The position numbers and the translations under genes were made by a program. Under the pieces are notes generated by a model, which saw only the letters and a list, made by a program, of their open reading frames with translations, did not search any database and was not told where the DNA came from. Source: Tsukamurella pulmonis (GTDB lineage: Bacteria; Actinomycetota; Actinomycetes; Mycobacteriales; Mycobacteriaceae). Taken from it: DNA of 64,000 bases. This document shows, piece after piece, positions 35,187 through 63,338 of this stretch (position 1 is the first letter of the stretch; each line of letters opens with the position of its first letter). The stretch lies in the NCBI RefSeq assembly GCF_900103175.1, contig NZ_FNLF01000002.1, positions 3,796,136 through 3,860,135 on the forward strand, in the 5' to 3' direction.

Positions 35187-35324
35187 CACCTACAGCGGGT
35201 GCAGGTCCTCGGGCCGGGTGGCCCGGGGACCGACTCGCCGTCCCTTGCTCCGGATCCACCTGTCCCCTAATCTCCCCAGGTCAGACCCGAAAACTTGTCA
35301 CACCCTGCCGCTAGATTCGAGGTC

Positions 35325-36047
35325 ATGGAAGCCCAGGTCCTCAAAGCCGCCGACCGCCTCAGCCTGTCCCCGTCGGTGTCGTCGGGCGCGATCCAGCGGG
35401 TGCTCGACGCGGATCCGTCGGACGCCGTCGCCGCGTACTTGGCACTGGCGGAGGTCCACGTGGGCCGGGTGGGCTCGACGCGGAACGCGCACGAGGATCC
35501 GGAGGCCCTGGCGCTTCACGAGGCCGTGACGAAGATGGGGCTGTTCTCCACCGCTCAGGCCAATGTGCTCCCCCGCTGGTGCGCGGCGACGATACCCGCC
35601 CGGCTGCCGGTCGAGCTGTTGATGCCCGAAGACATCATCACCACGACTTGCGAGTTCATCGCGCTCCTCGCGTACTTGGTGGAGACGGGCATGTTCCCGC
35701 GGCCCCGCCGGGACGCGGACCTGGGCGCGATTCAGATGGGCGCGGTACTGGGCCCGATCTCGCCCGCCGCGCGGGAGCTGTACTTCGATGGTCCAGATCC
35801 ACGCCTGATCAAGGCCCACAAGGAGCTGGTTGAAGCGGTGGCTGCGGATCCAAAGCTCCTGTACCAGCGTCGCAACCATCCCGTGAAGGATCGGATGCTC
35901 CTCCGGCTGCGGGAAGTGGGCTTCGGGTTCGACACCGCGCGCAAGATTCTGGTGTGCGAGCAGGTCGATTTGGAGCAGGGCAAGGGTGGTCAGCGGCCAA
36001 CGGAGAGATTCGTGGCGGAGCTGGTGCTCCTCCTGGACCGCCGGTAA
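35325..36047 (+). CDS. hypothetical protein, 240 residues
   Basis: Soluble, mostly helical, beginning MEAQVLKAADRLSLSPSV. No motif recognised. The C-terminal half (HKELVEAVAADPKLLYQRRNHPVKDRMLLRLREVG) is rich in Arg and Leu. One GGGGACCGAC word lies 91 bases upstream of the start. A start ten codons earlier (MSHPAARFEV) is also open. Confidence 0.6.
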   Translation: MEAQVLKAADRLSLSPSVSSGAIQRVLDADPSDAVAAYLALAEVHVGRVGSTRNAHEDPEALALHEAVTKMGLFSTAQANVLPRWCAATIPARLPVELLMPEDIITTTCEFIALLAYLVETGMFPRPRRDADLGAIQMGAVLGPISPAARELYFDGPDPRLIKAHKELVEAVAADPKLLYQRRNHPVKDRMLLRLREVGFGFDTARKILVCEQVDLEQGKGGQRPTERFVAELVLLLDRR

Positions 36048-36159
36048 CCCGGCTCCGCCGTGGCCGAGGGGACCGACTCGCGACCGTGCACCGTTTCTGT
36101 CAGCCCAGGTCGCTAGCGTGCGCTCCGACAGCGTTATCCGGCTCACCAGGAGGAACACC

Positions 36160-36471
36160 ATGGCTCTCCCCACTCTCACCCCCGAACAGCGCGCCAACGC
36201 CCTCGCGAAGGCCGCCGAGGTCCGCGCAGCACGCGCCGTGATCAAGGCCGATCTGAAGGCTGGCACCACCACCTTGGCCGAGGTGCTCGACCGCGCAGAC
36301 GAACCCGCCGTCGGCAAGCTGAAGGTCCTCGCGCTGCTGCAGGCCCTGCCGAAGGTCGGCAAGGTCAAGGCCACCGAGATCATGACGGAGCTGGAGATCG
36401 CCGACACCCGTCGTGTCGCTGGCCTCGGGGAGCGTCAGCGGGCCCATCTGCTGGAGAGGTTCGCCGCGTAG
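36160..36471 (+). CDS. mihF: integration host factor, actinobacterial type (mIHF)
   Basis: 103 residues. It closely follows the remembered mycobacterial mIHF: MALPTLTPEQRANALAKAAE at the start, LQALPKVGKVKATEIMTELEIA (HhH-like) and GLGERQRAHLLERF at the end. mIHF is a nucleoid protein that bends DNA and is required for L5 phage integration. The chromosomal gene normally sits between pyrF and gmk; this copy lies inside the element, so it is probably an extra one. AGGAGG lies six bases before the ATG, and a strong terminator follows. Confidence 0.9.
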   Translation: MALPTLTPEQRANALAKAAEVRAARAVIKADLKAGTTTLAEVLDRADEPAVGKLKVLALLQALPKVGKVKATEIMTELEIADTRRVAGLGERQRAHLLERFAA

Positions 36472-36485
36472 CAACCCCGCAGGTA

Positions 36486-36526
36486 CAGAAGCCCGCCGCC
36501 TCAGCGTTCGAGGCGGCGGGCTTCTG
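36486..36526 (+). terminator. strong hairpin terminator after mihF
   Basis: Seventeen-base perfect arms (CAGAAGCCCGCCGCCTC / GAGGCGGCGGGCTTCTG) around a seven-base loop, 15 bases after the mihF stop, isolate this gene as a monocistronic unit. Confidence 0.85.
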
Positions 36527-36650
36527 CGTCGGATGGTCCTCCGTCTAAGGGGGGCGGACTGACTCATACCGTCGCGGACACGCCAACGGCCGACATGGTC
36601 GCTCGTCGTGGAGTTGGTGCGCCTACTGGTCCGCCGGTGACACTGGAGCC

Positions 36651-36818
36651 ATGAACGACCAGCAGCAGGCGGACCTCGATCTCGTTCTCACCTGCGCAGC
36701 CGAGGTCTGGGCACCAGTCGTGGTCCAGGACTGGCTCACTGGCTCACTCCGGTCGGGCACACACTTCCCGACGTGGCGGGGTACCGCCGCGAGGTGGTCC
36801 CTGACCCCTCGCCCGTAG
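36651..36818 (+). CDS. possible small protein, 55 residues
   Basis: Starts ATG (MNDQQQADLDLVLTCAAEVW) and keeps good codon character for about 38 codons, then turns into WRGTAARWSLTPRP and stops. The change suggests a frameshifted remnant of a longer gene. The rest of 36472-37018 contains only the mihF terminator and one copy of a 35-base repeat. Confidence 0.35.
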   Translation: MNDQQQADLDLVLTCAAEVWAPVVVQDWLTGSLRSGTHFPTWRGTAARWSLTPRP

Positions 36819-36871
36819 AGCGGGACACTGCGCCCGCTCGTGATCCATCCCGGTGCGTCGCGGAGCTGCGC

Positions 36872-36906
36872 GGGGCGACACGCCGGGAGATTCCCGTGGG
36901 GTCAGG
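36872..36906 (+). repeat. 35-base imperfect repeat, copy 1
   Basis: Begins GGGGCGACACGCCGG and ends TCAGG. It matches 38369-38403 at 30 of 35 positions. Both copies lie outside clear genes, near promoters or gene remnants of the element. Confidence 0.6.
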
Positions 36907-37837: not shown

Positions 37838-38335
37838 TCATAGGCAGGTCGGCGAGCTGCGTCGCGGGGGACCGACAGTCACTTCGATGCCGGGCCTGGG
37901 TGGCGGCATCTTCCGGCGTGCCAGGCCCGGTACGTGCATCGTCTGGTCGGCGCGCTTCGAGTGGGCGTAGAGCACCCGCTTCTTTGTCAGGCCCACGACA
38001 GCAGCGATGTCCCACAAGGACCATCCGGCAGCCTGGCACACGTCAACGGCTGCGCCGAACAAGGGGAGCCCTTGCGTCTGGTAGATGCTGGTCAGAGCCT
38101 CGACAGCCTTCTCTGGCAGCACATCGCGGGTGAGCCTCCGCCCCTCGGCATCGGTCACGTCGAGCAGGGAGGCCACCGTGGTCGCGGGGAACACGGTGCG
38201 GATACATCGGATGGTCCGTGCCAACTCCCGACGAGCCTCGCGGACCGCGGGACGGGCGAGCGGCCCTGCTGGTACAGCGGCGTGTGCGGCGCGAAGTTGG
38301 GCGACGGTCGGACGTGTGAACTGCTGTTTTGTCAT
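37838..38335 (-). CDS. possible HTH DNA-binding protein, 165 residues
   Basis: Begins MTKQQFTRPTVAQLRAAHAAV. Residues about 105-130 (AGWSLWDIAAVVGLTKKRVLYAHSK) fit a helix-turn-helix with recognition helix TKKRVLYAHS. The C-terminus is basic and proline-rich, and one GGGGACCGAC word overlaps it. It may regulate element genes; the HTH call is by pattern only. Confidence 0.55.
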   Translation of the reverse strand: MTKQQFTRPTVAQLRAAHAAVPAGPLARPAVREARRELARTIRCIRTVFPATTVASLLDVTDAEGRRLTRDVLPEKAVEALTSIYQTQGLPLFGAAVDVCQAAGWSLWDIAAVVGLTKKRVLYAHSKRADQTMHVPGLARRKMPPPRPGIEVTVGPPRRSSPTCL

Positions 38336-38403: not shown

Positions 38404-38478
38404 ATGCGCGGAGGGGACCGACATTCGCCGGCACTACACCACCACTCGGAAACGAGAAACATTCCGGCAGTTAGTTCC

Positions 38479-39123
38479 TCAGGACCACAGGTACCGCATG
38501 ATCCCGACGAAGTCCCGGCGAGCCTCGTCGATCCGCTGCTCCCACTCGGCCTCGCGGATCCGCCACGCCTCGTGCGCCGCCTGCTCCGCCGGGGTTAACG
38601 GGCGCATCGTGACTCGCTCGCCCACCTCAGCCTCTGGGAACAGGTCCCCAGCGGCGACGAACGCGGCCTGCTCCTCCTCGGTGTACTTCGGCATGGGCTC
38701 GGACAGGCGCGCGATGAGCTGCTGGAACTCGGCGCGGCGCTCGTCACCGATGTCGCAGATGGACCAGTCGCGGTGGTACCTCAGGCTCGCGATGGCCAGC
38801 GCGTTGAAGCTGGAGTCGAACTCATCGATCACCCAATCCAGCGCCGGATCCCGCAGGTACGACGGTGCACCGACCGCCTCCCCATAGGTCAGGTGCCGCC
38901 GGTCGAGTTCCAGCGCGAGGGGGCCGACACAGCCCGTGTAGCCGGTGAACATACCGCCCTGCTCGTGGCTCCGTCCGAACCACTTCGGGTCCCAGTCCGC
39001 GCGCAGTCGGAACTCGAGATGCAGTCGGTCCCCCAAGTCCAGCGCGAAACCCCGCGCCATCCACGAGGTCACCGCGGGGTCATGGCGGATGCCGACACCG
39101 AACTTGAGCTTGAACGTGATCAC
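38479..39123 (-). CDS. hypothetical protein, 214 residues
   Basis: GTG start (VITFKLKFGVGIRHDPAV) chosen because AGGAGG lies seven bases upstream; the open frame extends 78 further codons without coding character. It is soluble, with aromatic- and Arg-rich stretches (LHLEFRLRADWDPKWFGRS) and a Glu-rich C-terminus. No family is recognised. Confidence 0.6.
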   Translation of the reverse strand: MITFKLKFGVGIRHDPAVTSWMARGFALDLGDRLHLEFRLRADWDPKWFGRSHEQGGMFTGYTGCVGPLALELDRRHLTYGEAVGAPSYLRDPALDWVIDEFDSSFNALAIASLRYHRDWSICDIGDERRAEFQQLIARLSEPMPKYTEEEQAAFVAAGDLFPEAEVGERVTMRPLTPAEQAAHEAWRIREAEWEQRIDEARRDFVGIMRYLWS

Positions 39124-39429
39124 GGCGGGCCTCCTGGAGCTGACGGGAGCAAAGCCGACCAGCCTATCGCCACGGGGACCGACACCGCGAACGAGTTTCA
39201 GTGAGCCGAGACCGTGCCATGCCTCAGTTAGATGGGTCATCCTCGATTCGCGCAATGCTCCGCCTCTCCGCGTCCAAGTGACCGCCGCGAAGGTGCTGCA
39301 GAGCTTCAACTGTCGACAGCTCTGTGAGCCCTTCAGGCAGATCATCGAGATCGGCACGGGACTCGGCTGCCGACGACGACCAGATGGGTGGGGCCAGCTT
39401 CGGCCGTCATCACCTTCCTCACGCTGGTC

Positions 39430-39608
39430 GGCGTGAGCAACGAGTTGTCAGCCTCACCCAGCGACGCCTCGCCGATCCGGCCGCGGTGATCGCCGGCCTT
39501 CCACCCGACCGTCGGCCGCTGCCGACGGTGACCGCCTACGACCGGCTCCTTCGCCGGCGCACCGCCTCAGATGCTCCACCACCAGCAACCCCGGAAAGGC
39601 ACCCATGA
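39430..39608 (+). pseudogene. 5'-truncated istA transposase remnant (IS21 family)
   Basis: The frame ending at 39608 reads VVSLTQRRLADPAAVIAGLP then PDRRPLPTVTAYDRLLRR, which looks like the tail of an IS21-type IstA. It overlaps the istB ATG by four bases, the normal IstA-IstB junction. Upstream of about 39430 the frame is not transposase-like, so most of istA is gone and the element cannot move alone. The left limit is approximate. Confidence 0.55.
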
Positions 39609-40426
39609 GCACCACCACCTCGAAATCGCAGGCCACCAAGCTGGCGCCCTCGCTGCGGCGCCGCGGAGGTCTCACCGAAGAAGCCGCCCTCGCCGCCGTT
39701 GACCAAGCCTGCCGGCGCCTGCGGCTACCGACGGTGCGGTCGATGATCGACCAGCACCTCACCGCCGCCGCGAAGCAGCAGCTGTCCTATCAGGGCTTCC
39801 TCGCCGAACTGCTCCTGGCGGAGGTCGACGACCGGGACCGGCGTTCGACCGTTCGACGCGTCAACGCCGCGGGGTTTCCTCGGGATAAGTGGTTGGCGGA
39901 CTTCGACTTCGACGCCAACCCCGACATCGAAGCCGCCACTATCCACCAGCTCGCCACCGGCGACTGGATCCGCCACGGCCTACCGCTCTGCCTCATCGGC
40001 GACTCCGGGACAGGCAAGTCTCATCTGTTGATCGGCTTGGGCACCGCCGCTGCGGAGCAGGGCCTTAGGGTCCGCTACACCCTCGCCACGAAGTTGGTGA
40101 ACGAGCTGGTCGAGGCCGCTGACGAGAAGCAGCTCGCGAAGACCATCAACCGCTACGGCCGCGTCGATCTGCTCATCATCGACGAGCTCGGCTACATGGA
40201 ACTCGACCGCCGCGGCGCCGAACTGCTCTTCCAAGTCCTCACCGAACGCGAGGAGAAGAACAGCGTCGCGATCGCCTCCAACCAGTCTTTCTCCGGCTGG
40301 ACCGACACCTTCACCGACCCCCGCCTCTGCGCAGCCATCGTCGACCGCCTCACATACCGCGGCACCATCATCGAAACCGGCACCCACAGCTACCGACTCG
40401 CACACACGCAGGCTGCGGACGTGTGA
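39605..40426 (+). CDS. istB: IS21 family transposition helper ATPase IstB
   Basis: 273-residue AAA+ protein of the IstB/DnaC family. Walker A GDSGTGKS is at 132-139, Walker B LLIIDELGYMELDRRGAELLF, sensor region SVAIASNQSFSGWTDTF, and IVDRLTYRGTII near the end. It normally assists IstA in target selection. Intact itself, but its istA partner is truncated. It lies at the left edge of the GGGGACCGAC-free segment. Confidence 0.9.
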   Translation: MSTTTSKSQATKLAPSLRRRGGLTEEAALAAVDQACRRLRLPTVRSMIDQHLTAAAKQQLSYQGFLAELLLAEVDDRDRRSTVRRVNAAGFPRDKWLADFDFDANPDIEAATIHQLATGDWIRHGLPLCLIGDSGTGKSHLLIGLGTAAAEQGLRVRYTLATKLVNELVEAADEKQLAKTINRYGRVDLLIIDELGYMELDRRGAELLFQVLTEREEKNSVAIASNQSFSGWTDTFTDPRLCAAIVDRLTYRGTIIETGTHSYRLAHTQAADV

Positions 40427-40437
40427 TTGGGCGGGGC

Positions 40438-40671
40438 CTAGGCTTTGCGTCCCGCGGTGCCGTTCGTGCTGCCCGTCCACGGTTCACCGTTGGTGTCGTG
40501 CCCGATGATGGGCATGAACCCGACACCATCACTGCCTCCGTGGGTGGGTGTGATCTTGTTGCACTGAGGACAGTGAACCGTCCCGCTTCCCGTGCTCCAC
40601 ACCGTCGCGCCGCTACCTAGGCACACCTGTCGCGTAGTGATCGCTTCTACACCATCGGCTAGCTCAATCAT
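40438..40671 (-). CDS. small CxxC-containing hypothetical protein, 77 residues
   Basis: MIELADGVEAITTRQVCLG...VHCPQCNKITPTHGG: one C-x2-C pair plus an upstream Cys, suggesting a partial zinc ribbon. A good AAGGAG Shine-Dalgarno seven bases before the ATG supports translation. Function is unknown. It is convergent with istB. Confidence 0.6.
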   Translation of the reverse strand: MIELADGVEAITTRQVCLGSGATVWSTGSGTVHCPQCNKITPTHGGSDGVGFMPIIGHDTNGEPWTGSTNGTAGRKA

Positions 40672-40799
40672 GTTGCTCTCCTTTAGATCGGGATTCTGTG
40701 AGGATTTGATCTCGGTTGGATGTGCAGTCTCCGGGGGCTACGCACTCCCGTGCTGCCACCCTGACAAACCGGACTACGTGCGTTGGGCGAGCGAAAGCG

Positions 40800-40842
40800 C
40801 CGAAGCCCCGCCTGACCCTTTGATGGTCAGGCGGGGCTTCGG
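40800..40842. terminator. perfect hairpin terminator
   Basis: Eighteen-base perfect arms (CCGAAGCCCCGCCTGACC and its complement) around a seven-base loop, just downstream of the minus-strand 44-residue gene. It separates that gene and the cold-shock gene from the CxxC gene. Confidence 0.85.
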
Positions 40843-40863
40843 ACAGGTCGCTGCGGTGCGGAG

Positions 40864-40998
40864 TTACGGATAGAGCTTCGTTCCGTAGTCTTCGCGACTA
40901 TTGACTTCAGCGAGTTTGGCGCGCAGCCGGGTCCACCAGCTGGCGTCCTCCTGCTCAGGTGTGTCGGGTAGGGAACTGTTGTCGCGTGCGTGCGTCAT
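40864..40998 (-). CDS. small acidic protein, 44 residues
   Basis: Starts MTHARDNSSLPDTPEQED, continues ASWWTRLRAKLAEVNSRED and ends YGTKLYP. It has a clean start, stop and codon pattern and is followed by a strong terminator. The gene lies 51 bases downstream of the cold-shock gene on the same strand and may be read with it. I know of no family. Confidence 0.55.
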   Translation of the reverse strand: MTHARDNSSLPDTPEQEDASWWTRLRAKLAEVNSREDYGTKLYP

Positions 40999-41049
40999 GC
41001 TGATGCCCTATCCGTTGATTCCAGTGCAGGAGCGGTGATTCGCTGCGCC

Positions 41050-41262
41050 TTATGCCAGTGCTTGCACAGCGACGGCCTGGGGGCCGCGGTCGCCGGCCTC
41101 CTCCTCGAAGCTGACGCGGTCATTCTCGTCGAGGCTGCGGAAGCCACCATTGGCGACGATGCCGGAGAAGTGAACGAAGAGGTCCTTGCTACCGGAGTCC
41201 GGGGTGATGAACCCGAAGCCCTTGTCGGCGTTGAACCACTTGACGGTGCCCTGCTGAGCCAT
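41050..41262 (-). CDS. cold-shock domain protein
   Basis: 70 residues, [20 protein letters not shown] with RNP1 (KGFGFI) and RNP2 (LFVHFSGI) of the CspA OB fold, which binds single-stranded nucleic acid. An AGGAG site lies upstream of the ATG. It is accessory-borne, near the IS21 remnant, so it is probably an extra copy. The long upstream minus-strand leader (about 160 bases, open reading) is typical of csp genes. Confidence 0.93.
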
Positions 41263-41490
41263 GCGATTACTCTCCTGAGTATCAAAAGTGTTGCAAGACC
41301 GAATGTTTCGATCTTGGGTATTGCGGAGGTACGCGAAAACAAAGCTACCGGGACTACTCACGGAGTTTGGGATGTGTCCGCCGCGGAAAATCTTCGCGAA
41401 ACGAGCCACCAAGAAAATCAACCAACTTCACCGTAGCAGACATCCCGATCAGCGGCTAGGTCTAGCACCTCCCGACTTCGATCGAGCGAC

Positions 41491-41595
41491 TCAGCTCATG
41501 CTCCACGCGAGCAACGCGGCGACCGCCGCTCCTAGGATCCACGGCCACTTGCGACGCCCCCGCGCGGGACCACTTTGCTCTAGATCTTCAGTCAA
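41491..41595 (-). CDS. possible single-span membrane peptide, 34 residues
   Basis: TTG start preceded by AGGAG six bases upstream. The sequence is LTEDLEQSGPARGRRKWPW followed by ILGAAVAALLAWSMS: an acidic head, a basic patch and one membrane helix, the usual pattern of a small membrane peptide. Support is from the Shine-Dalgarno and the pattern only. Confidence 0.4.
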   Translation of the reverse strand: MTEDLEQSGPARGRRKWPWILGAAVAALLAWSMS

Positions 41596-42068
41596 CTTCC
41601 ACTCCTACCCTCTAGAACGACGCCACGACTCAATGAGCGTCACTTCCACAGTGCCATAACGATCACCCGCCGCCAGGTGTGGTGTCACCCCAGACCTCGT
41701 CCACAGCCACCGGGGCCAAATCAACCCGCCCTCGTGGGGCCACTCCTAGTTGACATAGCCACCCGACCCTCGCCGACCGAATCCAGCCGGCGGACGATGC
41801 GCGTCGGAACCTCAGATTGATCACCTCTCAGGATGCAGTTGCATCTGAATCTCAGGCATTTGCCCCAGCAGGTACCCGCTTGCCCGCATCCAGGACGGCC
41901 ACCCTTCGAGCACTATCTAATGGCTAATCCATTAGCCATGTCGATGCAGGTGGGGGGTCTATTTCGCTGCTCGACTGACGCTCTTGCGCTGCCACAAGCA
42001 CGGAGCAGCTCCTACCTTTCGGGGTGCCGAGAGACGGCCAGGATCGATCCCGAAGGAGGGTGTCCCAA
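41596..42068. other. gene-free stretch upstream of the cupin operon
   Basis: No convincing gene. It holds the ATGGCTAA-N4-TTAGCCAT palindrome and presumably the promoter of the cupin-FAD-ligase operon, with a leader of about 130 bases ending in AAGGAGG before the cupin GTG. Base composition is less GC-rich than in the core. Confidence 0.5.
41920..41939. promoter_or_regulatory. CGNR-regulon operator candidate, copy 1
   Basis: Perfect dyad ATGGCTAA-TCCA-TTAGCCAT with matching flanks (CTA before, G after). The same sequence, differing only in the spacer, lies between the HPP and CGNR genes at 46442-46461. It is 130 bases upstream of the cupin start, a suitable place for a repressor or activator site. 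Confidence 0.7.
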
Positions 42069-42482
42069 GTGGCGGACATTGAGGTCATCAACAACGTTTT
42101 TCGCTCCGGCTTCGAGATGACGGAGCTGGATTGGGGGAAGTGGCAGGAACCGGGGCGTGTGGGGGTCGATCGCTACCCGCTGTGGGTCCCAAGCGCGCAG
42201 GAGACTTCGGTTGGCATGCTGGTGCGGTATCCGGCCGGTGCGCACGGCGACTACCACGAACACCTCGGGTACGAGCTGATGCTCGTCCTTGAAGGGACTC
42301 TCGAGCACAGCAACGGGCAGACCTTCGTGGCCGGCGACCTCATCGTTGAGGAACCCGGCACCTTCCATCGGATGGCAACCGTCGAAGGCGCAACCATCCT
42401 TGCCATCCGCACTAAGCCCGCGGACCCGAGGCCGGAAGATGCCCCTGAAGTGCCGACCGAGATCCTGGAGGCACAGCGTTGA
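42069..42482 (+). CDS. ChrR-like cupin domain protein
   Basis: 137 residues from GTG with AAGGAGG upstream. The cupin barrel is visible: GMLVRYPAGAHGDYHEHLGYELMLVLEGTL with metal-ligand His residues, then GDLIVEEPGTFHRM. It resembles ChrR/dihydroxyacetophenone-dioxygenase-type single cupins. It may be a small dioxygenase or isomerase, or a sensor. First gene of a three-gene operon; its stop overlaps the next TTG by four bases. Confidence 0.75.
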   Translation: MADIEVINNVFRSGFEMTELDWGKWQEPGRVGVDRYPLWVPSAQETSVGMLVRYPAGAHGDYHEHLGYELMLVLEGTLEHSNGQTFVAGDLIVEEPGTFHRMATVEGATILAIRTKPADPRPEDAPEVPTEILEAQR

Positions 42483-46427: not shown

Positions 46428-46441
46428 ACGACTCCTAACTA

Positions 46442-46461: not shown

Positions 46462-46528
46462 GAGCCTAGGGGTATCATGAGGGCAGTGCAACCGCAGTGA
46501 CACAGAGGACAGCAAGGCAGGTCGGGAA

Positions 46529-52965: not shown

Positions 52966-53195
52966 CGATGGCTCTTCTCGCCGCGGGGACCGACAGTCCG
53001 CCAGTAGAAGACGGCCAACTCCCGCTCCCACCGATCCACCATGTCGTCGAGACCGACCGCGCGAGCCTCCTCGGGTGCCACAGCGGCGAGGTGGTGCGCC
53101 GCGTTCACGGCCTCACCGAGCTTCATCATGAGGTTGTGCTCGGCATCGTGGGCGGCTCCGGTCGGCGGAGGTGCCGCGGGCATCGGGCGAGTCAC
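52962..53195 (-). CDS. small hypothetical protein, 77 residues
   Basis: Proline/alanine-rich start, then helix LMMKLGEAVNAAHHLAAVAPEEARAV and WERELAVFYWRTV. Overlaps the DUF2637 gene upstream by four bases and the next gene downstream by four. Function unknown. Confidence 0.6.
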   Translation of the reverse strand: MTRPMPAAPPPTGAAHDAEHNLMMKLGEAVNAAHHLAAVAPEEARAVGLDDMVDRWERELAVFYWRTVGPRGEKSHR

Positions 53196-54830: not shown

Positions 54831-55439
54831 ATGTGGAGGATCATGATCGGAGTCGTCGCGGGAGGGTTCGGCGCGTCCGTCGCCGGGATATGGGGATTCT
54901 TCATTCCCATCGGCGGGAGCATTCTCTGGTACATCACCGCAGGCAAGGACACCTCCGGCGTGGTCCCCACCGGCGCGGCAACGACCCTCACCGACCGACG
55001 CGGATCCCTCGGCCCGGCCCAGGCCAGCTGGAACCGCGCCGCCCAAGGGGCGAACTGGGGCGTCTGGCACCAGCGCCCAGGACTGTTCGACCGCATCACC
55101 GTCGGCGGCATGAAGTTCAGCGCGGTCACGAAACACCGCGAGTGGCAGATCGCCCCAGGTAAGACGGTGTTCGTCCCCCACTTCTGCATCGTCGGAGGCC
55201 AGTTCCGCGAGGACGGGGACATGACGCTCGTCCTAGAACCCACGCACGACGGCCTCCACGAAGCTCCGCTCCAAGGCTTCGCCCCTATCGGGCTCGCGGA
55301 GTTCGGCGCGATGCGGATCGAGGGCGAGGTCCACCGGCATCACGATGTGGGACAGCGGTATTCGATCCATGTCACCAACACGCATCGACCACTCGACGAC
55401 GGCCCGATCCTCAAGGGAGACCACGATGAGTGGCTCTGA
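54831..55439 (+). CDS. membrane-anchored protein upstream of the translocase, 202 residues
   Basis: Starts MWRIMIGVVAGGFGASVAG; one to two membrane segments in the first 38 residues, then a soluble domain with GGMKFSAVTKHREW and FVPHFCIVGGQFREDGD. Its end overlaps the translocase start by 14 bases, so they are coupled. Start choice is uncertain (a TTG 13 codons earlier). The 54598-54830 gap before it is AT-rich with imperfect dyads and probably carries the divergent promoters. Confidence 0.6.
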   Translation: MWRIMIGVVAGGFGASVAGIWGFFIPIGGSILWYITAGKDTSGVVPTGAATTLTDRRGSLGPAQASWNRAAQGANWGVWHQRPGLFDRITVGGMKFSAVTKHREWQIAPGKTVFVPHFCIVGGQFREDGDMTLVLEPTHDGLHEAPLQGFAPIGLAEFGAMRIEGEVHRHHDVGQRYSIHVTNTHRPLDDGPILKGDHDEWL

Positions 55440-57747
55440 CTTCGACGACTTCCTCAACTGGGACAAGCCGAAGCAGACGGAACCCGCTCCGGCGCATGAG
55501 AACCCGTTCGTGACCTCCGCGCCCAAGAACAAGCCGGACCTATCAGAAACCGATAGGCCGGCGAGCCCGGCTCCCGAGGAACCCGAGCGAACCAAGCCGG
55601 AACCGACCTTCGACAAGATCGCCTCTGAACAGGGGGAACAGGTCGGCGGCAGCGGGAAGGTGATCCAGTCGGAGGGCTACGACGCCGACGAGGCCCCGAA
55701 GCCGAAGGGACGCGGCAAGACCAAGAAGCTAGCACCCGAGCCCGACGCGGCCAGCGACGCCGAACTTCTCAAGAAGATGCGTGCACGGTCCGCGCAGATC
55801 CTCCGCGACATGCCGAAGACCCAGGTGCACAAGCGGACGCGTGTCGGTGAGAGCCTGCGGCGCGACCTGCCGCCGGAGCAGGAAGCCCAGCTCACGCGGC
55901 AGTTTCTACGCAACACCTACGTGGGCAACCAAGCGCGGTGGCGCGAGCGCACCGCCGCTTTGAGCCTGTTCGCGCAGGTGCACCTCGCCGGATCCACGCG
56001 TGATGCTCTCCCCCATCTGGTCGACGTGCTGCTCACCCCGACCTTGGATGCGGTGGTGTTCCGCTGCACCTTCCCCGGGGCCGTGATCCAAATGTCGAAC
56101 CCGTGGGGGACCGACATGACGGCCAGTCAGTCCACCATCGAGACTCCGGATCCCCGCGACGGGGGCGGGGAAACCTGGAATATCAAGGTCAAGCTGGGGG
56201 CCGCGATGAAGATCTGGGACCTCGACTTCCACACCCCACCGCCGGAGCCGCCCGACCCGATGGACGTGATCGCGGCGGAGGCGCCCGTGCTCGCCGCGGC
56301 GTTGGCGGACCGCGACACTCCCGGCTTCAACCGGTGGCGCAAGGTCGCAAAGTACGGAGAAATCACGAGGTCGGAGACCCGCCAGAAGGTGGTGGGCGGC
56401 AAGGCCGTCGCCTACGAATCCCATGCCGCTCCCCGCTTCGTCGATGCTGGCGTCGGCCTGCGCGGCCCGTGGATCGACATCGAGCCTGTGCACGCCCGCG
56501 GCCAGACCGTGGGAGACATCCAGTCCCGGGGTTCCCGGCTGGCGTCGGTCCTGCGCTGCCCGGACCTCCGGGTCGACGTGAGCGGCGGGGGGCAAACGGC
56601 GCGTTTGAACCTCAACACCAAGCCGCTCCAGTTCCCCGCCTTCGTCTCGGCGGAGCCCGAGGACTTCACCCGCCCGATCAGAGGAAACTCGGAAGCCAGC
56701 GTGGTGAAGGCGTACCGCGATCTCGTCTGGCCGCTGGGCGTCACCGCGGAGGGGCGGCGCCTGGAGAACCACCTCGCGACCGTGCCGCACACCCTGGTCT
56801 GCGGCACCACCGGCTGCGGCAAGACCCGGACGATGATGAGCGGCGTCACCGCCCTCTGTGTCCAGGGTGCGCAGATCATCGTCTGCGCCGCCAAGGCCGA
56901 CACGTGGATGAAGCTCATGGCCCCGGGGCAGTCGCCCGGGGTCCTCCACGTCGCCACCTCGCGCGGCGGCATGCTGCGAGCGGTGGCGTACGTCCTGCAC
57001 GAGACGCAGCGCCGGAACAACCTGGTCGAACGGGGCGTGAACCCCGAGTCGTTCACGCCGCTCGTGCTCCTCTTTGAAGAGCAGGCCTACTTCACGAAGG
57101 CCATGGCGACCGACCCCGCACTCAGGTCATACCTCCGTGCGCTGGAGAAGATCACCCTGGTCGGTCGGTCGCTCGGCGTGCACTTCATCGGCGCGTCGCA
57201 GCGGGTGGAGGACAAGAGCTTCTCCAACGCCTTGTTGGCGCAGGTCAGCAGCCGTATCGCTCTCGGAGAGAAGGAGGACATGGCGCTTTCGAAGCTGTTC
57301 GACGGATCCGAGGCCGCCGCCGAAGCGATGGCCAGCATCGCGAAGTCGATGAAGGGTCGCGGGGTCGTCCTCGACACCGACACCGGCGAGGTCGAGCTGA
57401 TCCAGATGCCCTACATCTACTCCCCCGGCGCGAAGCCCGGTGAGTACGACAAGGCGACCCCCGAGATGCTGGCCAACTGGGAACGGTGGAAGACCGCGTT
57501 GGAGTCCACGCCGCGGATCCAGTCGCGCATCGGATGGGCCTTCGAGACCGGCGTCGCCGGAGCAGCGAATCCCTGGCAGGAAATGGATTGGGAAGACCTC
57601 GAAATGATCCGACCGATCAACCTCGACCGACAGGACGAGAACGGGGATTGGATCCCCGTTCCGGAACGGGCGATCTACGACCCGACCAGCTCCGAGTACC
57701 TGGGAGGCATTAGTAAGTCCTCCGGCAACCACGCCTCTATCGAATAA
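55426..57747 (+). CDS. FtsK/SpoIIIE-type DNA translocase (TraB-like)
   Basis: 773 residues. A Pro/Glu/Lys-rich N-terminus (about 1-120) precedes a middle domain and a P-loop ATPase with Walker A GTTGCGKT at 460-467 and Walker B LVLLFEEQ at 546-553. Further motifs are SLGVHFIGASQRVEDKSF and IALGEKEDMALSKLF. It lacks an obvious N-terminal membrane span, so the upstream membrane protein may anchor it. In actinomycetes such proteins move double-stranded DNA between cells by a single-protein mechanism guided by short repeated words. One GGGGACCGAC lies inside it. Confidence 0.85.
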   Translation: MSGSDFDDFLNWDKPKQTEPAPAHENPFVTSAPKNKPDLSETDRPASPAPEEPERTKPEPTFDKIASEQGEQVGGSGKVIQSEGYDADEAPKPKGRGKTKKLAPEPDAASDAELLKKMRARSAQILRDMPKTQVHKRTRVGESLRRDLPPEQEAQLTRQFLRNTYVGNQARWRERTAALSLFAQVHLAGSTRDALPHLVDVLLTPTLDAVVFRCTFPGAVIQMSNPWGTDMTASQSTIETPDPRDGGGETWNIKVKLGAAMKIWDLDFHTPPPEPPDPMDVIAAEAPVLAAALADRDTPGFNRWRKVAKYGEITRSETRQKVVGGKAVAYESHAAPRFVDAGVGLRGPWIDIEPVHARGQTVGDIQSRGSRLASVLRCPDLRVDVSGGGQTARLNLNTKPLQFPAFVSAEPEDFTRPIRGNSEASVVKAYRDLVWPLGVTAEGRRLENHLATVPHTLVCGTTGCGKTRTMMSGVTALCVQGAQIIVCAAKADTWMKLMAPGQSPGVLHVATSRGGMLRAVAYVLHETQRRNNLVERGVNPESFTPLVLLFEEQAYFTKAMATDPALRSYLRALEKITLVGRSLGVHFIGASQRVEDKSFSNALLAQVSSRIALGEKEDMALSKLFDGSEAAAEAMASIAKSMKGRGVVLDTDTGEVELIQMPYIYSPGAKPGEYDKATPEMLANWERWKTALESTPRIQSRIGWAFETGVAGAANPWQEMDWEDLEMIRPINLDRQDENGDWIPVPERAIYDPTSSEYLGGISKSSGNHASIE

Positions 57748-57762: not shown

Positions 57763-58263
57763 ATGCCTCGTAAGGATCCCCACGCGAACCGCGCCGCGCG
57801 CGACTTCATGCAGCACCTGGTCCCCGCGTACACGGAGGAGCTGACCAGCGCAGTGAAGCCTCTGATCGAGCTGGCCAAGAAGTGCCGGGCCGACGATCAC
57901 AAGCCCACCATCAACGAGGTTCACCAGGTCCTCCACGAGCTTCATCTGGCGCTGAAAGCAAGCGAAGAGATGAAATGGGAACTGCTTGCTGCAACCCGCC
58001 CCGCCGGGTCCAGCGTGGAGTACATTGCGCGCGCTTCACACACGGCGTACTCGAAGACGAAGGCTCGGCTCAGTATGCATCCGATCAGTCGGGCGAAGGG
58101 TGTCAACTTCGTCCGTGTAGATACCCATATGAGGGGTACGGGGGGTGCGGATTCTGATTTTTCAGATTTTCGATTTGTTGTTCAAAAAATTTCTCCCCAG
58201 GTTGTCGGTTGGGAACTGTGGTTTCCGGATTCTGTTGATCCTGACGGTGAGGTATCCACCTGA
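57763..58263 (+). CDS. hypothetical protein downstream of the translocase, 166 residues
   Basis: AAGGAG before ATG, sequence MPRKDPHANRAARDFMQHLV, helical to about residue 125, then RGTGGADSDFSDFRFVVQKI. The last roughly 120 bases are distinctly AT-rich, unlike the rest of the element. It lies 15 bases after the translocase stop and may be a transfer accessory protein (inference from position). Confidence 0.6.
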   Translation: MPRKDPHANRAARDFMQHLVPAYTEELTSAVKPLIELAKKCRADDHKPTINEVHQVLHELHLALKASEEMKWELLAATRPAGSSVEYIARASHTAYSKTKARLSMHPISRAKGVNFVRVDTHMRGTGGADSDFSDFRFVVQKISPQVVGWELWFPDSVDPDGEVST

Positions 58264-58736
58264 TGCGTGTGCGTGCGGGCGGGTGCGCACGTGACGTGCG
58301 TGGGTGCGCGCAGGTGCCCGCCCGCTCAGGTGGATCAAGGATCCTCGGGATGTTTCTGGGGGTCGGTCCCCGGCGGGCCGGTCGGTGTGCGCATCTGCAC
58401 CGTGGGGGTCTGGTAGGTGGGTTTTCGACGGTTGGGGCTCCCTCCGAGGGGGCCAATACGGCTGACATGGCCCCCTCGGTCGATCTGGGATCTGGGCCTG
58501 TTCGGGCCCGCCGCGGCACCCGGCCCGACCACACAGACGCTCTGTGTCGAGCAGTCCTGGGTTGCACCCCTCGGCCCGGTCTGAGAAATGGCTCTGCCAG
58601 CACGAGTATCCCTGCCAGTGGCCGACGAAACTATTAGGAACTGATAGGTCGCCGGCCAGGACCTCAGGGCTCAGAAACTCGTCGGCACAGGCCCCTCCGG
58701 ATCACTAAAATCAGGGACGGACAAGAAAGGAGATCC
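58264..58736. other. gene-free structured stretch
   Basis: Two open frames on opposite strands have no coding character. The first 60 bases are dense in GTGCG repeats, and a 12-base perfect inverted repeat (CCGAGGGGGCCA / TGGCCCCCTCGG) at 58444-58479 lies in the middle. One GGGGACCGAC word is on the minus strand at 58362. Position after the translocase operon makes a transfer locus or origin plausible, but unproven. Confidence 0.45.
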
Positions 58737-59261
58737 GTGAACCAGAAGAAGCTCGCATCCACCGTTGTCACCGTCGGCGTCCTCGCCTCATCGGTGGCGG
58801 GGTGCAGCGAGAAGAGTCGCCCACTCAACGAACGGGTATTCACCGACGTGATCTGCATGAAGGTGTACACCTCGGGCGGCTCTGGTAGCAATTGCGGCAC
58901 CGTGCTCAGCGCCAGCTCCGCGGACTTGGAGAAGTGCATCCCGCAGAACCCCGCGAGCCCGATCAGCAGCCTCCAAGAACTCGCACGGTACTGCCCTTCC
59001 GTGGCATCTCGGATCACCGCGAACAACAATTCTTCCGGCGAATCCACTCCGTCGCCGGGGACCGACACCACCAATGCGGCCGAGGTGGCCTCTGTCCCCG
59101 AACGCATGTCGGACCTCGGAGATACCGTGAAGGCGGTGGGACTCGGGATTATCGGACTGGTCGCGGTCACCATCTTGGGGTTCTGGATAAGGGCCCGCCG
59201 GGACCGACAGAATCGGACCGCCCAGCGGGCACATGCCGCCGAACATGGCTGGCACAGCTGA
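58737..59261 (+). CDS. lipoprotein-like membrane protein, 174 residues
   Basis: GTG start; signal peptide VVTVGVLASSVAGC with a lipobox-like Cys, an exposed domain with CMKV, SNCGTV, EKCIPQ and RYCPSV cysteines, and a second membrane span near the C-terminus (VKAVGLGIIGLVAVTILGFWI) with a basic tail. AGGAG six bases before the GTG. It heads a tight plus-strand series of small proteins. Exposed disulfide-rich surface proteins are common in such elements. Confidence 0.65.
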   Translation: MNQKKLASTVVTVGVLASSVAGCSEKSRPLNERVFTDVICMKVYTSGGSGSNCGTVLSASSADLEKCIPQNPASPISSLQELARYCPSVASRITANNNSSGESTPSPGTDTTNAAEVASVPERMSDLGDTVKAVGLGIIGLVAVTILGFWIRARRDRQNRTAQRAHAAEHGWHS

Positions 59262-60202: not shown

Positions 60203-60540
60203 GCGTCGTCGATGTGTTGAAGTGGGTGCCGCTCGGCATCATCGTGGCCGTCGTGTTGCTGTACCTGGTGGTCCAGTGGGATGCCAAGCACCAGGACGAT
60301 CCCGGGCCTCCGCCGCCGATGCCGCGCCCGTACGGCGACTTCGGTCCGATCGGCACCACGCAGCCTGGGCCGACGGCTCCGTCTGCGCCCACTGCACCGT
60401 CGGCACCCTCCGCGCCTAAGGGGACCGACACCAGCCAGGGCCAGTTCGACCCGAAGGACCGCTCACCCAATGAGGACCAGTTCGCAGCGAAGCCCTTCGC
60501 CCCGAAGGATCTCACGCCCGACGCCGACGGGTTCATCTGA
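60199..60540 (+). CDS. single-span membrane protein with Pro/Ala linker, 113 residues
   Basis: Anchor VDVLKWVPLGIIVAVVLLYLVVQW, then a PPPPMPRPYG and TAPSAPTAPSAPSAP linker and an acidic end. AAGGAG upstream of the ATG. A GGGGACCGAC word encodes GTD in it. The next start overlaps its stop by one base. Function unknown. Confidence 0.6.
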   Translation: MSVVDVLKWVPLGIIVAVVLLYLVVQWDAKHQDDPGPPPPMPRPYGDFGPIGTTQPGPTAPSAPTAPSAPSAPKGTDTSQGQFDPKDRSPNEDQFAAKPFAPKDLTPDADGFI

Positions 60541-60929
60541 TGAGCGGGGGCCTCATCGACGACTTGCAGGCCGCGGCGGCACGGATGGGCCTGCCGCCGC
60601 TGGAGTTCCATACGCACCTGGCCCAGCGGATCCAGGCGGGTGACGTGCAGGATCTGGTGACGGGCTACATGGACTTGCTCGCGGAGTATCAGGCAACCCG
60701 GGTCTGGTTCCTCGACGTGCTTGATGCCGCGTTCGAGGCCGGGTGGACTCGCCGCCCGGGGATCCATCACGGCCTCCCACTCGACCCGCCGGCGGGGACC
60801 GACACCCCGTGGATCAAGCTCGCGGCCATCGATCCTGGGAACCTCACGTCGGTGAAGCGGTTCGCCGGGAAGCTCTGTCGCGCCGGGGTCACCGTGCCCG
60901 AGCCGCCAACGGCGCAGGCTGCGGCGTGA
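60540..60929 (+). CDS. hypothetical protein with HicA-like C-terminal domain, 129 residues
   Basis: The N-terminal half is helical (SGGLIDDLQAAAARMGLP). The C-terminal half, EAGWTRRPGIHH ... PPAGTDTPWIKLAA ... KRFAGKLCRAGVTVPEPP, resembles the double-stranded-RNA-binding-type fold of HicA-like proteins and repeats in the next gene. It is not called a toxin: no HicB partner is visible and the catalytic-type His does not align well. A GGGGACCGAC word encodes part of the domain. Confidence 0.55.
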   Translation: MSGGLIDDLQAAAARMGLPPLEFHTHLAQRIQAGDVQDLVTGYMDLLAEYQATRVWFLDVLDAAFEAGWTRRPGIHHGLPLDPPAGTDTPWIKLAAIDPGNLTSVKRFAGKLCRAGVTVPEPPTAQAAA

Positions 60930-61294
60930 GGACCAACGAGATCATCTTCTTCGGGTACATGGCCTTCGTGATCCTGCTGATCTGGCTCCTCCCCGCTGGC
61001 CCTGGCTCCGTCGGGTCCTCGCCGGCACGCGGACCAGCCGGGGGCCGGCGAGTCGGTCCCCTGAGACCGAGGGGCGCTGACGTGGACCGCGCCAGGATGA
61101 TCGCTGCTGCCCAGGCCGCCGGGTGGACGCTCGTGAAGGGCCGCAAGCACTACAAGCTCATGCCGCCCGAGGGGACCGACGCCCGCTGGATCAACCTAGC
61201 CGCGACGCCGTCGGACCGCCGCGCCGCCGCGAACACCGCAAGCCGACTGCGCCGTGCCGGTGTCCCGGTGCCTCACAGGAGCGGGCACCGGTGA
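60926..61294 (+). CDS. membrane-anchored protein with HicA-like domain, 122 residues
   Basis: GTG start overlapping the previous stop. The first part is a membrane span (IIFFGYMAFVILLIWLLPAG) and a linker. The C-terminal roughly 70 residues, MIAAAQAAGWTLVKGRKHYKLMPPEGTDARWINLA ... RLRRAGVPVP (shown interrupted), match the pattern in the preceding gene. A GTG at 61082 could begin a separate shorter protein. Two GGGGACCGAC words lie in it, one per strand. Confidence 0.55.
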   Translation: MRTNEIIFFGYMAFVILLIWLLPAGPGSVGSSPARGPAGGRRVGPLRPRGADVDRARMIAAAQAAGWTLVKGRKHYKLMPPEGTDARWINLAATPSDRRAAANTASRLRRAGVPVPHRSGHR

Positions 61295-62268: not shown

Positions 62269-62401
62269 CCCGGCACTGTCAACGTGTCGACCCCGCTATC
62301 GGCGGCCGGTCCAGGCGCAGGTCGAAGGGCAGAACTCGGTAGCACCGCGCACTGGCCTCAACGTCCTGCAGATCATCATGATCAGCGCCGCACCGAGGAG
62401 G

Positions 62402-62605
62402 TCACCGGTGACGGCGCGGTGGTCGGGGTTGCAGGCCCTCACGGGGGACCGACAGTCCCCGCTCGACGATCTCTTGCACCTCTGGCGGCAGATCGCGGTG
62501 TTGGTACGTGCGCCGGACCGTCGGCTCCTCGGCGGCGCGGCGGAGGGTCTCGCGCAGCTCGGGGCTCTCGTCGTACTCCCGCTGGGCGTCGTGGTCGCTC
62601 GTCAT
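62402..62605 (-). CDS. small basic protein, 67 residues
   Basis: Starts MTSDHDAQREYDESPELRETL with AGGAAC upstream; C-terminal half is basic (QPRPPRRHR). The long frame begins 13 codons earlier without an equal start. A GGGGACCGACAGTCCCC word overlaps the coding part. Function unknown. Confidence 0.5.
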   Translation of the reverse strand: MTSDHDAQREYDESPELRETLRRAAEEPTVRRTYQHRDLPPEVQEIVERGLSVPREGLQPRPPRRHR

Positions 62606-62700
62606 GAGGTTCCTATTTCTTGAGACATGGTGTAGCGCTGGCACATTCGCGCCTCGTCAACTACAGTTGACACCAGTCGATACCTGATCTCGGAGGCCCC

Positions 62701-63051
62701 ATGAAGCTTCTCACCCGCCTGGCCTGCGGCGCAGCCCTGTTCAGCGTCGTCGCGGTCACCAGTTGCTCGCTGCCGCCCGAGCGCCCCGCCGCAGCAGGGG
62801 GACCGACCAGCAGCACAAGCACTCGAACGATCTACTGCCCCTCGCCGGGCGAGGGGAACCCGTCTGACCTGTGCCAGGCCCACGCCGCCGGGGTCGGCCT
62901 GGATACTCCACACCAGCGGGTGCACGTTGTCACGTGCCCGCCCTCGGGAAGCGGGAGCGCCCCTGCTGGGTGCCTGTCGCACGAATCCGCGGTACCGATC
63001 CCGGCCGGGGCGGGGACCTACGGGACTCCGGTCCCGGCGGGACCGCGCTAG
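62701..63051 (+). CDS. small lipoprotein, 116 residues
   Basis: Signal peptide TRLACGAALFSVVAVTSC with a lipobox-like TSC, then a Pro/Ser/Thr linker and a domain with four more cysteines (IYCPSPGEGNPSDLC, VTCPPSG, GCLSH). Followed by two hairpins. It resembles cargo lipoproteins seen elsewhere in the element (58737). Confidence 0.65.
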   Translation: MKLLTRLACGAALFSVVAVTSCSLPPERPAAAGGPTSSTSTRTIYCPSPGEGNPSDLCQAHAAGVGLDTPHQRVHVVTCPPSGSGSAPAGCLSHESAVPIPAGAGTYGTPVPAGPR

Positions 63052-63063
63052 GACACATGCGAA

Positions 63064-63095
63064 AGAGGCCGTCAGCTTCGATGCTGACGGCCTCT
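63064..63095. terminator. hairpin terminator, first of a tandem pair
   Basis: Thirteen-base arms AGAGGCCGTCAGC / GCTGACGGCCTCT, 12 bases after the lipoprotein stop. Confidence 0.8.
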
Positions 63096-63124
63096 TCTGA
63101 CGCCAACCGACCTGGTCGGAAACA

Positions 63125-63157
63125 CAACAGCCCGGGGCACACACCCCCGGGCTGTTG
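63125..63157. terminator. hairpin terminator, second of a tandem pair
   Basis: Thirteen-base arms CAACAGCCCGGGG / CCCCGGGCTGTTG. Together with the hairpin just before, it forms a double terminator that would also serve the convergent right-end gene. Confidence 0.75.
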
Positions 63158-63338
63158 CCGCACTGGTACCGAATGAGTGGGTCCCTAACCTCGCTCGGGA
63201 TCCACAGTACCATCGCGACCCGACTGACGTGAGCGTGTCATATTGTGGCCCAATAACTTTGACTACACCAAGCGAATCAGAATAGGAACATGTCGGTCCC
63301 CGCTGCAACCACTTGTCCTCCGCGGCCCGATCCTGCTT

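What the first reader, a model, noticed from the sequence alone, without database searches (positions are those of the whole stretch)
35225..63301. A short asymmetric word, GGGGACCGAC, saturates the mobile element and is absent from the core
By eye there are 21 exact copies (15 plus, 6 minus) in about 28 kb and none in the 33.6 kb core. A 10-mer of this composition would be expected well under once by chance in 30 kb. Copies read as GTD, GDRQ, SVP, VGP or GGP, on both strands and between genes, so this is DNA selection, not a protein repeat. The element carries an FtsK/TraB-type translocase; such enzymes use short asymmetric guide words (KOPS, SRS, TraB TRS). Other readings are phage-style stoperators, a protein-binding site of the element's IHF, or a modification mark.
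Basis: partly seen in the sequence, partly recalled or inferred. Interest (0 to 1): 0.88.

Follow-up and report, generated by a model that had tools for sequence, protein, structure and literature searches.

The report
Mobile-element DNA marked by exact word
A mobile DNA element in the bacterium Tsukamurella carries one exact ten-letter word scattered over most of itself and kept by natural selection, related elements carry the same word or a one-letter variant, and the likeliest reader is a membrane protein that the element itself encodes.

Summary
Confirmed, with small corrections: 22 exact GGGGACCGAC in the window (15+, 7-), all at 35225-63301; 29 in the complete 47.2-kb tRNA-Ala-integrated element; 27 in the other 4.74 Mb, about the Markov expectation. 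A codon-aware null does not explain it (14 in CDS, mean 1.2 expected; 15 elsewhere, 0.07 expected). In two related Tsukamurella elements aligned copies are kept in 18 of 19 and 13 of 18 cases, against 29% and 24% of all aligned 10-mers. Two further elements use GGGGACCGTC; one shares a genome with a GGGGACCGAC element.

The translocase-guide reading is not supported: no polarity (p=0.60), and one GGGGACCGTC element has no homologue of this translocase. IHF (2 of 5 elements), stoperators (no strand bias) and start-associated sequences also fail. Best candidate reader: a DUF2637 membrane protein with an HTH-like C-terminus (window 53192-54043 -), present in all five elements; two putative recognition-helix residues separate GAC from GTC elements, while its N-terminal type does not track the word. 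Best reading: a self-mark read by this protein, tethering element DNA to the membrane for transfer or segregation. Reader and function are inferred from five proteins and one change of word.

The parts
33602..33648 (+). attL: 47-bp copy of the tRNA-Ala(CGC) 3' end, left boundary of the 47.2-kb element (right copy lies outside the window, at the tRNA gene)
35225..35234 (+). word copy
   Evidence: aligned copy kept in G113
36068..36077 (+). word copy
   Evidence: kept in G113
37867..37876 (+). word copy
   Evidence: kept in G158
38413..38422 (+). word copy
   Evidence: kept in G158 and G113
39024..39033 (-). word copy
   Evidence: kept in G113
39174..39183 (+). word copy
   Evidence: kept in G113
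50916..50925 (+). word copy
   Evidence: kept in G158, 9/10 in G113
51028..51037 (-). word copy, 1 bp before the start codon of the called gene 50427-51026
   Evidence: kept in G158
51146..51155 (+). word copy
   Evidence: kept in G158
52143..52152 (-). word copy, 1 bp before the start codon of the called gene 51710-52141
   Evidence: kept in G158 and G113
52489..52498 (-). word copy; kept in G158, not kept at the aligned site of the GGGGACCGTC-type element G086
52985..52994 (+). word copy
   Evidence: kept in G158, 9/10 in G113
56106..56115 (+). word copy inside the translocase gene
   Evidence: kept in G158, 9/10 in G113
58362..58371 (-). word copy
   Evidence: kept in G113
59057..59066 (+). 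word copy
   Evidence: kept in G158 and G113
60420..60429 (+). word copy
   Evidence: kept in G158, 9/10 in G113
60794..60803 (+). word copy
   Evidence: kept in G158
61052..61061 (-). word copy
   Evidence: kept in G158 and G113
61171..61180 (+). word copy
   Evidence: kept in G113
62444..62453 (+). word copy
   Evidence: kept in G158 and G113
62798..62807 (+). word copy; 9/10 in G158
63292..63301 (-). word copy; last in the window, 7 more lie downstream outside the window
   Evidence: kept in G158
53192..54043 (-). proposed reader: 283-aa DUF2637 protein, four TM-like stretches and a C-terminal region that looks like an HTH
   Evidence: Pfam PF10935 32.5 bits, cut-off 22.8; hydropathy; present in all five word-bearing elements; no Pfam or PDB match confirms the HTH on its own
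54843..55439 (+). 198-aa protein with an apparent N-terminal membrane segment (by eye), overlaps the translocase gene
   Evidence: found in the three GGGGACCGAC elements only
55426..57747 (+). FtsK/TraB-type translocase motor, 773 aa, no recognisable C-terminal winged helix
   Evidence: Pfam PF01580, alignment
57763..58263 (+). 166-aa protein with an HTH-like stretch (by eye), directly after the translocase gene
   Evidence: the stretch differs between E000 and G158 although their word is the same
36160..36471 (+). H2TH (IHF-like) protein, rejected as reader
   Evidence: PF22525; homologue in G113 only among the four other elements
39365..50364 (.). cargo segment that begins near an IS21 IstB gene, no word copy
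   Evidence: (0 of 29 copies)

Best explanation
GGGGACCGAC is an element-specific self-mark. SHOWN: an exact, non-palindromic 10-bp word (soft preference for A at position 11), on both strands, without detectable polarity, inside and between genes, kept by purifying selection in three related Tsukamurella integrative elements; two further elements carry the sister word GGGGACCGTC instead. MORE WEAKLY INFERRED: this ties the excised or replicating element DNA to the membrane beside the transfer apparatus, for transfer and/or segregation of that element and not of a co-resident element with the other word.
For: Enrichment. Selection: E000->G158 18 of 19 aligned copies kept (background 0.290), E000->G113 13 of 18 (0.235), G113->G158 10 of 10 (0.233) (binomial tails). 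Genus: the three genomes with this element type total 56, 46 and 37 copies, the other 13 Tsukamurella genomes 15-29. Cut at their att repeats, the five elements hold GAC/GTC words 29/0 (E000), 22/0 (G158), 21/0 (G113), 0/7 (G086), 4/11 (G158b); GTC totals in the whole genomes are 44 (G086) and 50 (G158). GAC sites in segments shared with GTC elements: two sites in G086, neither kept; in G158b 1 of 2 aligned kept. Integrases of the three GAC elements are 28-43% alike and use three att sites, yet the word is the same. Families found in all five: IS21, tyrosine integrase, serine resolvase, DUF2637, g21/g23-like small proteins. In DUF2637 the putative recognition helix goes with the word: GAC elements T/K-K-I-R/E-D, GTC elements R-T-I-E-K; two positions separate them strictly. 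The N-terminal type does not track the word: G158 and G086 95% alike, different words; E000 and G158b 85% alike, different words. G158 against G086: 5 of 40 differences fall in the 11-residue helix of a 274-aa protein (Fisher p=0.012, helix chosen after seeing the alignment).
Against: Five proteins and essentially one change of word: the covariation is suggestive, not statistical proof. The two GTC elements are not independent in all parts: their integrases are 95% identical and they share an att sequence, so common descent can explain part of their likeness. The four other DUF2637 loci in 16 Tsukamurella genomes hold no GAC word and at most one GTC word in 40-64 kb, and show no own word other than host-wide or tRNA words. 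Twenty DUF2637 loci from other genera show no comparable dispersed word (best corrected log10 -2.5), so scattered words are not a general property of DUF2637 elements. A 10-bp asymmetric site is long for a single HTH, so a dimer or partner would be needed (recalled). G158b also carries 4 GAC copies.
Confidence: 0.47

Rival explanations
1. Guide or loading word of the element's FtsK/TraB-type translocase (KOPS/SRS/TRS-like), read by the motor or by the 166-aa protein encoded directly after it.
For: Element of FtsK type; membrane, motor and HTH-like genes lie side by side in the order of FtsK's domains. Motor about 80% identical in the three GAC elements, 28% in the GTC element G086.
Against: No polarity (p=0.60). 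Motor lacks a recognisable C-terminal winged helix. G158b has 11 sister words but no homologue of the motor (tblastn 1e-4 over 70 kb) and no FtsK Pfam match in the 10 proteins scanned. The HTH-like stretch of the 166-aa protein differs between E000 and G158 although their word is the same.
Confidence: 0.16
2. Stoperator-like silencing sites: a repressor on scattered asymmetric sites blocks transcription of the integrated element.
For: Cluster A mycobacteriophages carry as many as 30 asymmetric 13-bp sites, with related but not identical motifs in related phages (PMC6550527, passages). The proposed reader itself could act this way.
Against: Stoperators predominantly have one orientation relative to transcription; here 15 same, 9 opposite, 5 ambiguous. 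Few one-mismatch copies. Cargo lacks sites.
Confidence: 0.12
3. Site of a partition, compaction or membrane-tethering protein that is not the DUF2637 protein (for example the g21/g23-like small proteins).
For: Scattered, exact, strand-neutral sites suit anchoring of a whole replicon; co-resident elements with different words resemble compatibility groups. g21/g23-like proteins are in all five elements, divergent in G158b.
Against: The g23-like protein is 82% identical between E000 and the GTC element G086, as much as among the GAC elements (80-83%). No DNA-binding domain is known for these proteins; g21 and g22 gave no PHROG match, g23 was not scanned.
Confidence: 0.13
4. Recognition or protection mark for an element-borne nuclease or modification enzyme.
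For: Exactness resembles restriction-type recognition; the element carries an HNH protein and a NucC-like gene.
Against: No methyltransferase among the proteins scanned (not all proteins were scanned); HNH homologues were found in two of the five elements; a 10-bp site is unusually long (recalled).
Confidence: 0.05

Closest known systems
Streptomyces TraB / clt system (8-bp TRS repeats)
   Same: Actinobacterial conjugative element with FtsK-type translocase and element-specific short repeats; chromosomes also hold clt-like sequences (PMC4170104, PMC3583192, passages only).
   Different: clt is a local region with repeats, read by the C-terminal winged helix (passages); here single copies are spread over the backbone, the motor lacks a recognisable winged helix, and one element lacks a homologous motor.
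FtsK KOPS / SpoIIIE SRS (recalled)
   Same: Short asymmetric words in many copies.
   Different: Those are polar (recalled); here no polarity, and the word is at background level in the host chromosome.
Stoperators of Cluster A mycobacteriophages
   Same: Tens of asymmetric element-specific sites; related genomes with slightly different motifs that correlate with repressor distance (PMC6550527, passages).
   Different: Stoperators are mostly one orientation to transcription; here not. Stoperator motifs are also looser (recalled).
Start-Associated Sequences of Cluster K mycobacteriophages
   Same: GC-rich asymmetric repeat scattered over an element; no exact copy in M. smegmatis (PMC3203893, passages).
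   Different: SAS lie typically 3-7 bp before start codons; here 3 of 29 lie 1-6 bp before a called start.
pIJ101 SpdA2 / sps and pSVH1 SpdB2
   Same: Spread-region proteins that bind plasmid DNA; SpdB2 is a membrane protein that binds DNA and contacts TraB; SpdA2/sps affects segregational stability (PMC4170104, passages).
   Different: sps is a palindrome in 2-3 copies; SpdB2 binding is described as non-specific. Whether DUF2637 is SpdB2's family was not tested.

Membership tests
KOPS/SRS-type FtsK guide words | Polarity along the replicon | tested here: not met
   Orientation permutation around the circle, 29 words, p=0.60
KOPS/SRS-type FtsK guide words | Cognate translocase with C-terminal gamma winged helix | tested here: inconclusive
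   Only FtsK_SpoIIIE found by Pfam; C-terminal tail without winged-helix-like sequence by eye; structure prediction unavailable
KOPS/SRS-type FtsK guide words | Translocase present in every replicon with the word | tested here: not met
   G158b: no homologue of ten FtsK-type query proteins by tblastn; no FtsK Pfam match in the 10 of 45 called proteins scanned. A motor of another FtsK family in the unscanned proteins is not excluded
TraB clt/TRS | Clustered repeats next to the tra gene | tested here: not met
   Single dispersed copies; tandem-repeat scan of window 33500-64000 finds two weak unrelated arrays
Cluster A stoperators | Predominantly one orientation relative to transcription | tested here: not met
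   15 same, 9 opposite, 5 ambiguous (own gene calls)
Cluster A stoperators | Asymmetric element-specific site in tens of copies | tested here: met
   29, 22 and 21 copies in three elements
Start-Associated Sequences | 3-7 bp upstream of start codons | tested here: not met
   3 of 29 within 1-6 bp of a called start; 2 of 22 at 1 bp by PGAP genes in L042, plus one at 17 bp
DUF2637 (window 53192-54043) | PF10935 match above its cut-off | tested here: met
   32.5 bits, cut-off 22.8
DUF2637 protein as reader | Present in every word-bearing element | tested here: met
   5 of 5
DUF2637 protein as reader | Specificity residues change with the word | tested here: inconclusive
   Two helix positions separate GAC from GTC elements, but n=5, one change of word, and the two GTC elements share an integrase
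DUF2637 protein as reader | Binds the word in vitro | not testable with these tools
   needs gel shift
Actinobacterial IHF site | IHF-like protein in each word-bearing element | tested here: not met
   2 of 5 elements; a chromosomal IHF was not looked for
Host Chi/KOPS/uptake word | Enriched in the host chromosome | tested here: not met
   27 copies outside the element against 20.9-33.5 expected

The most novel reading that the evidence does not exclude
A self-recognition code for mobile DNA: a membrane-anchored HTH-like protein reads tens of exact words written through the element's own genes, so that only that element's DNA is held at the membrane; two codes one base apart run side by side in one cell, and segments moved between elements lose the old code.
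Probability: 0.28. Interest if true: 0.87.

Novelty: new variant of a known kind. Interest (0 to 1): 0.72.

Why it matters
Exact, strand-neutral words spread over an element backbone and held by strong purifying selection fit none of the known scattered-site systems tested here. If the membrane DUF2637 protein reads them, that would give a function to a family found in 137 of 397 genomes searched in the same order, for which one full-text search (term DUF2637) found a single paper, on a genome assembly (search listing only). It would also offer a natural specificity pair (GAC/GTC) for testing how mobile elements tell their own DNA from others in the same cell.

Tried and rejected
Start-associated sequence idea (two copies look like RBS plus start): rejected, 3 of 29. 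KOPS-like polarity: p=0.60. TraB as reader: favoured until G158b was found. HTH_17 protein g48: no homologue found in G158, which has 22 words. Replication proteins: no homologue of E000's g52/g53 found in G158. Integrase: the three GAC elements have integrases only 28-43% alike; but the two GTC elements share one (95%), so by itself the GTC pair does not exclude an integrase. Serine resolvase: G158 and G086 94% alike with the same helix although their words differ. g21/g23 proteins: 70-82% between E000 and G086, which has the other word. A protein of G086 (G086_13) matched pieces in all four others, but different pieces, so it is not one shared family. IHF.

Generality: 20 DUF2637 loci outside Tsukamurella (20 of more than 150 listed, whose list was cut; chosen by contig position, 15 of 20 from the same family; in five the contig left only 21-28 kb) gave no comparable word. 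Distant TraB elements G008, G137, G007, G037 and G053: no own dispersed word other than the host-wide word, apart from a long repeat in G053 (TTACACCGAAA, 6 copies) that I did not follow. Two Rhodococcus plasmids: their top word looks like a CRISPR repeat beside type I-E genes. prophiGD51-2: its top word AACAGCCCAA is one local cluster at 11457-11746. Chromosomal controls: the strongest control word is the host word GACGGTGCC (corrected log10 -5.2), so G086's -4.6 is not remarkable by that measure alone and rests on clustering in the genome. Genome totals of GGGGACCGTC alone do not single out the two hosts: G198 has 42 and G168 39 against 44 and 50; no cluster is seen in G168, and G198 lies in about 890 contigs where a cluster could be hidden. 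Viral contigs gave no relative of the translocase.
Full report
OBSERVATION. The exact word occurs 22 times in the window (15 plus, 7 minus), all at 35225-63301, with 0.67 expected from dinucleotide shuffles. In window 34001-64000 it is the most over-represented 10-mer against an order-2 model (22 against 0.19). The window lies in a 4.78-Mb two-contig genome of genus Tsukamurella (inferred from same-genus relatives that are named: Tsukamurella sp. TY48 = G113). The element is bounded by a 47-bp direct repeat of a tRNA-Ala 3' end, window 33602-33648 and 47,208 bp further on, beside a tyrosine integrase. It holds 29 copies; the remaining 4.74 Mb hold 27, close to the 20.9-33.5 expected from the core. 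The host chromosome is therefore neutral for the word.

NULL MODELS. Shuffling synonymous codons within genes gives on average 1.2 copies in called CDS (maximum 6 in 300) against 14 observed; drawing codons from element-wide usage gives 0.57 (maximum 4); outside called CDS 0.07 are expected and 15 found. Genes were called with my own codon model, so boundaries are approximate; in the PGAP-annotated relative L042, 14 of 22 copies lie inside CDS. Two cargo segments next to IS21 genes hold 0 and 1 copy in 11 and 8 kb.

SELECTION. Two relatives with a translocase about 80% identical carry 22 copies (G158, 28.3-kb element; 99.9% identical to T. tyrosinosolvens NCTC13231 over 42.3 kb) and 21 copies (G113, 47.0 kb, the TY48 element); boundaries. 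Where alignments below 98% identity cover a copy, E000->G158 keeps 18 of 19 (all aligned 10-mers 0.290), E000->G113 13 of 18 (0.235), G158->E000 17 of 18 (0.282), G158->G113 9 of 13 (0.236), G113->E000 13 of 15 (0.225), G113->G158 10 of 10 (0.233) (tails). These comparisons share ancestry and are not independent; two E000 copies map to one G158 copy, and so do two G113 copies. Copies without a full alignment were left out: 10 of 29, 11 of 29, 4 of 22, 9 of 22, 6 of 21 and 11 of 21. Five losses in G113 and one in G158 are single-base. Over all 30 one-mismatch variants the elements hold 7 (E000), 6 (G158) and 17 (G113) copies; the word itself is expected 0.30 times in E000, so 30 variants would give roughly 9 by chance (my arithmetic). 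Position 11 prefers A: 19 of 29, 15 of 22, 11 of 21.

NOT POLAR, NOT TRANSCRIPTIONAL. Orientation around the circle is no more ordered than shuffles (p=0.60). Relative to transcription 15 copies point along, 9 against, 5 ambiguous. Three of 29 sit 1-6 bp before a called start.

SISTER WORD. Across 16 Tsukamurella genomes the word totals 56, 46 and 37 in the three genomes with this element type and 15-29 in the other 13. GGGGACCGTC totals 44 in G086, 7 of them in one 31.0-kb element, and 50 in G158, 11 of them in a second, 41.5-kb element, G158b. The totals alone do not stand out (G198 42, G168 39); the clustering does. So G158 holds one element with each word. Cut at their att repeats the five elements hold GAC/GTC words 29/0, 22/0, 21/0, 0/7 and 4/11 (E000, G158, G113, G086, G158b). 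Both aligned GTC copies between G086 and G158b are kept (2 of 2, tail 0.07). The aligned E000 site in G086 reads GGGTACCGAC and a second site lacks the word; in G158b one of two aligned E000 sites is kept and the other is one base off.

WHO READS IT. Five families occur in all five elements: the IS21 pair, the integrase, a serine resolvase, a DUF2637 protein, and g21/g23-like small proteins (own gene calls, small genes may be missed). G158b has no homologue of the window's translocase or of nine other FtsK-type queries (tblastn 1e-4 over 70 kb) and no FtsK domain in the 10 of its 45 called proteins that I scanned. IS21 is 91-100% identical in all five, so it does not track the word. The three GAC integrases are 28-43% alike and use three different att sites; the two GTC elements share one integrase (95%) and att sequence, so for the GTC pair the integrase also tracks the word, and the pair is not fully independent. 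The resolvase is 94% identical in G158 and G086, with the same helix, although their words differ. The g23-like protein is as similar between E000 and G086 as among the GAC elements. The DUF2637 proteins are mosaics: N-terminal 130 residues 85-93% alike in E000, G113 and G158b, 95% alike in G158 and G086, about 34% between the two groups; C-terminal 45 residues 91% alike in E000/G113 and 80-91% alike in G158, G086 and G158b. The word follows neither grouping as a whole, but it follows the putative recognition helix: E000/G113 ARGTVTKIRDAL and G158 SQGTAKKIEDL carry GAC; G086 and G158b AQGTVRTIEKL carry GTC. Positions 26 (K/T) and 29 (D/K) of the aligned stretch separate the words strictly. Hydropathy gives three or four TM-like stretches. 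That the C-terminus is an HTH rests on its look, on the depositor's label of the prophiGD51-2 homologue and the PGAP label of another homologue; Pfam and PDB sequence searches with it alone found nothing convincing.

MECHANISM. Shown: an exact word under selection, two variants, one predominating per element type. Inferred: read by the DUF2637 protein. More weakly inferred: tethering element DNA at many points to the membrane, beside the FtsK-type apparatus where there is one. In G008, G137 and prophiGD51-2 a DUF2637 gene also lies near an FtsK-type gene. A precedent for spread-region DNA-binding proteins in segregation and membrane work is described for pIJ101 and pSVH1 (PMC4170104, passages).

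LIMITS. One change of word among five proteins. Twenty DUF2637 loci elsewhere and four others in Tsukamurella show no own word beyond host-wide or tRNA words, so the scattered words are a local invention or the words elsewhere are too few or too loose to see. I found no paper on such a word in nine searches of the held library, which lacks most subscription journals; the primary TraB/TRS paper was not held, so TRS facts come from passages in other papers.

Noticed in passing
window 1-33600 and other Tsukamurella DNA: A second, chromosome-wide word GGCACCGTCG: 7 copies in the 33.6-kb core, 7 in the 29-kb right flank, 1 in the 47.3-kb element, 23 in the T. paurometabola plasmid (99.8 kb), 19 in G137 C11 (40 kb). 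Over-represented; could be a host KOPS-like or architecture word.
   Followed up: partly
window 54843-58263: Gene order membrane protein / FtsK motor / HTH-like protein mirrors the domain order of FtsK, as if split into three genes (domain reading by eye).
   Followed up: partly
L002:15029-15952 (beyond window end): bSEFIR/TIR defence-like gene at 86-88% amino-acid identity in the other two GAC elements.
   Followed up: no
L002:17585-18502 (beyond window end): NucC-like nuclease gene in the second cargo segment.
   Followed up: no
window 42069-45882: Cargo of cupin, FAD-NAD(P)-binding and AMP-binding enzyme genes in the word-free segment.
   Followed up: no
C2:3864485-3867550 (L002/L003) and G158, G086: IS21 copy 100% identical over 3.07 kb to copies inside both G158 elements, and 99.7% between G158b and G086: recent spread; all five word-bearing elements carry this IS.
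   Followed up: no
L050:14270-14316 and about 10.3 kb on: G158b is followed by a phage-like stretch that shares its att repeat (tandem integration); capsid, portal and terminase genes are annotated there in NCTC13231.
   Followed up: no
MW584195.1 11457-11746 (in L043): Mycobacterium prophage prophiGD51-2 has 7 copies of AACAGCCCAA in 0.3 kb, an operator- or iteron-like cluster.
   Followed up: no
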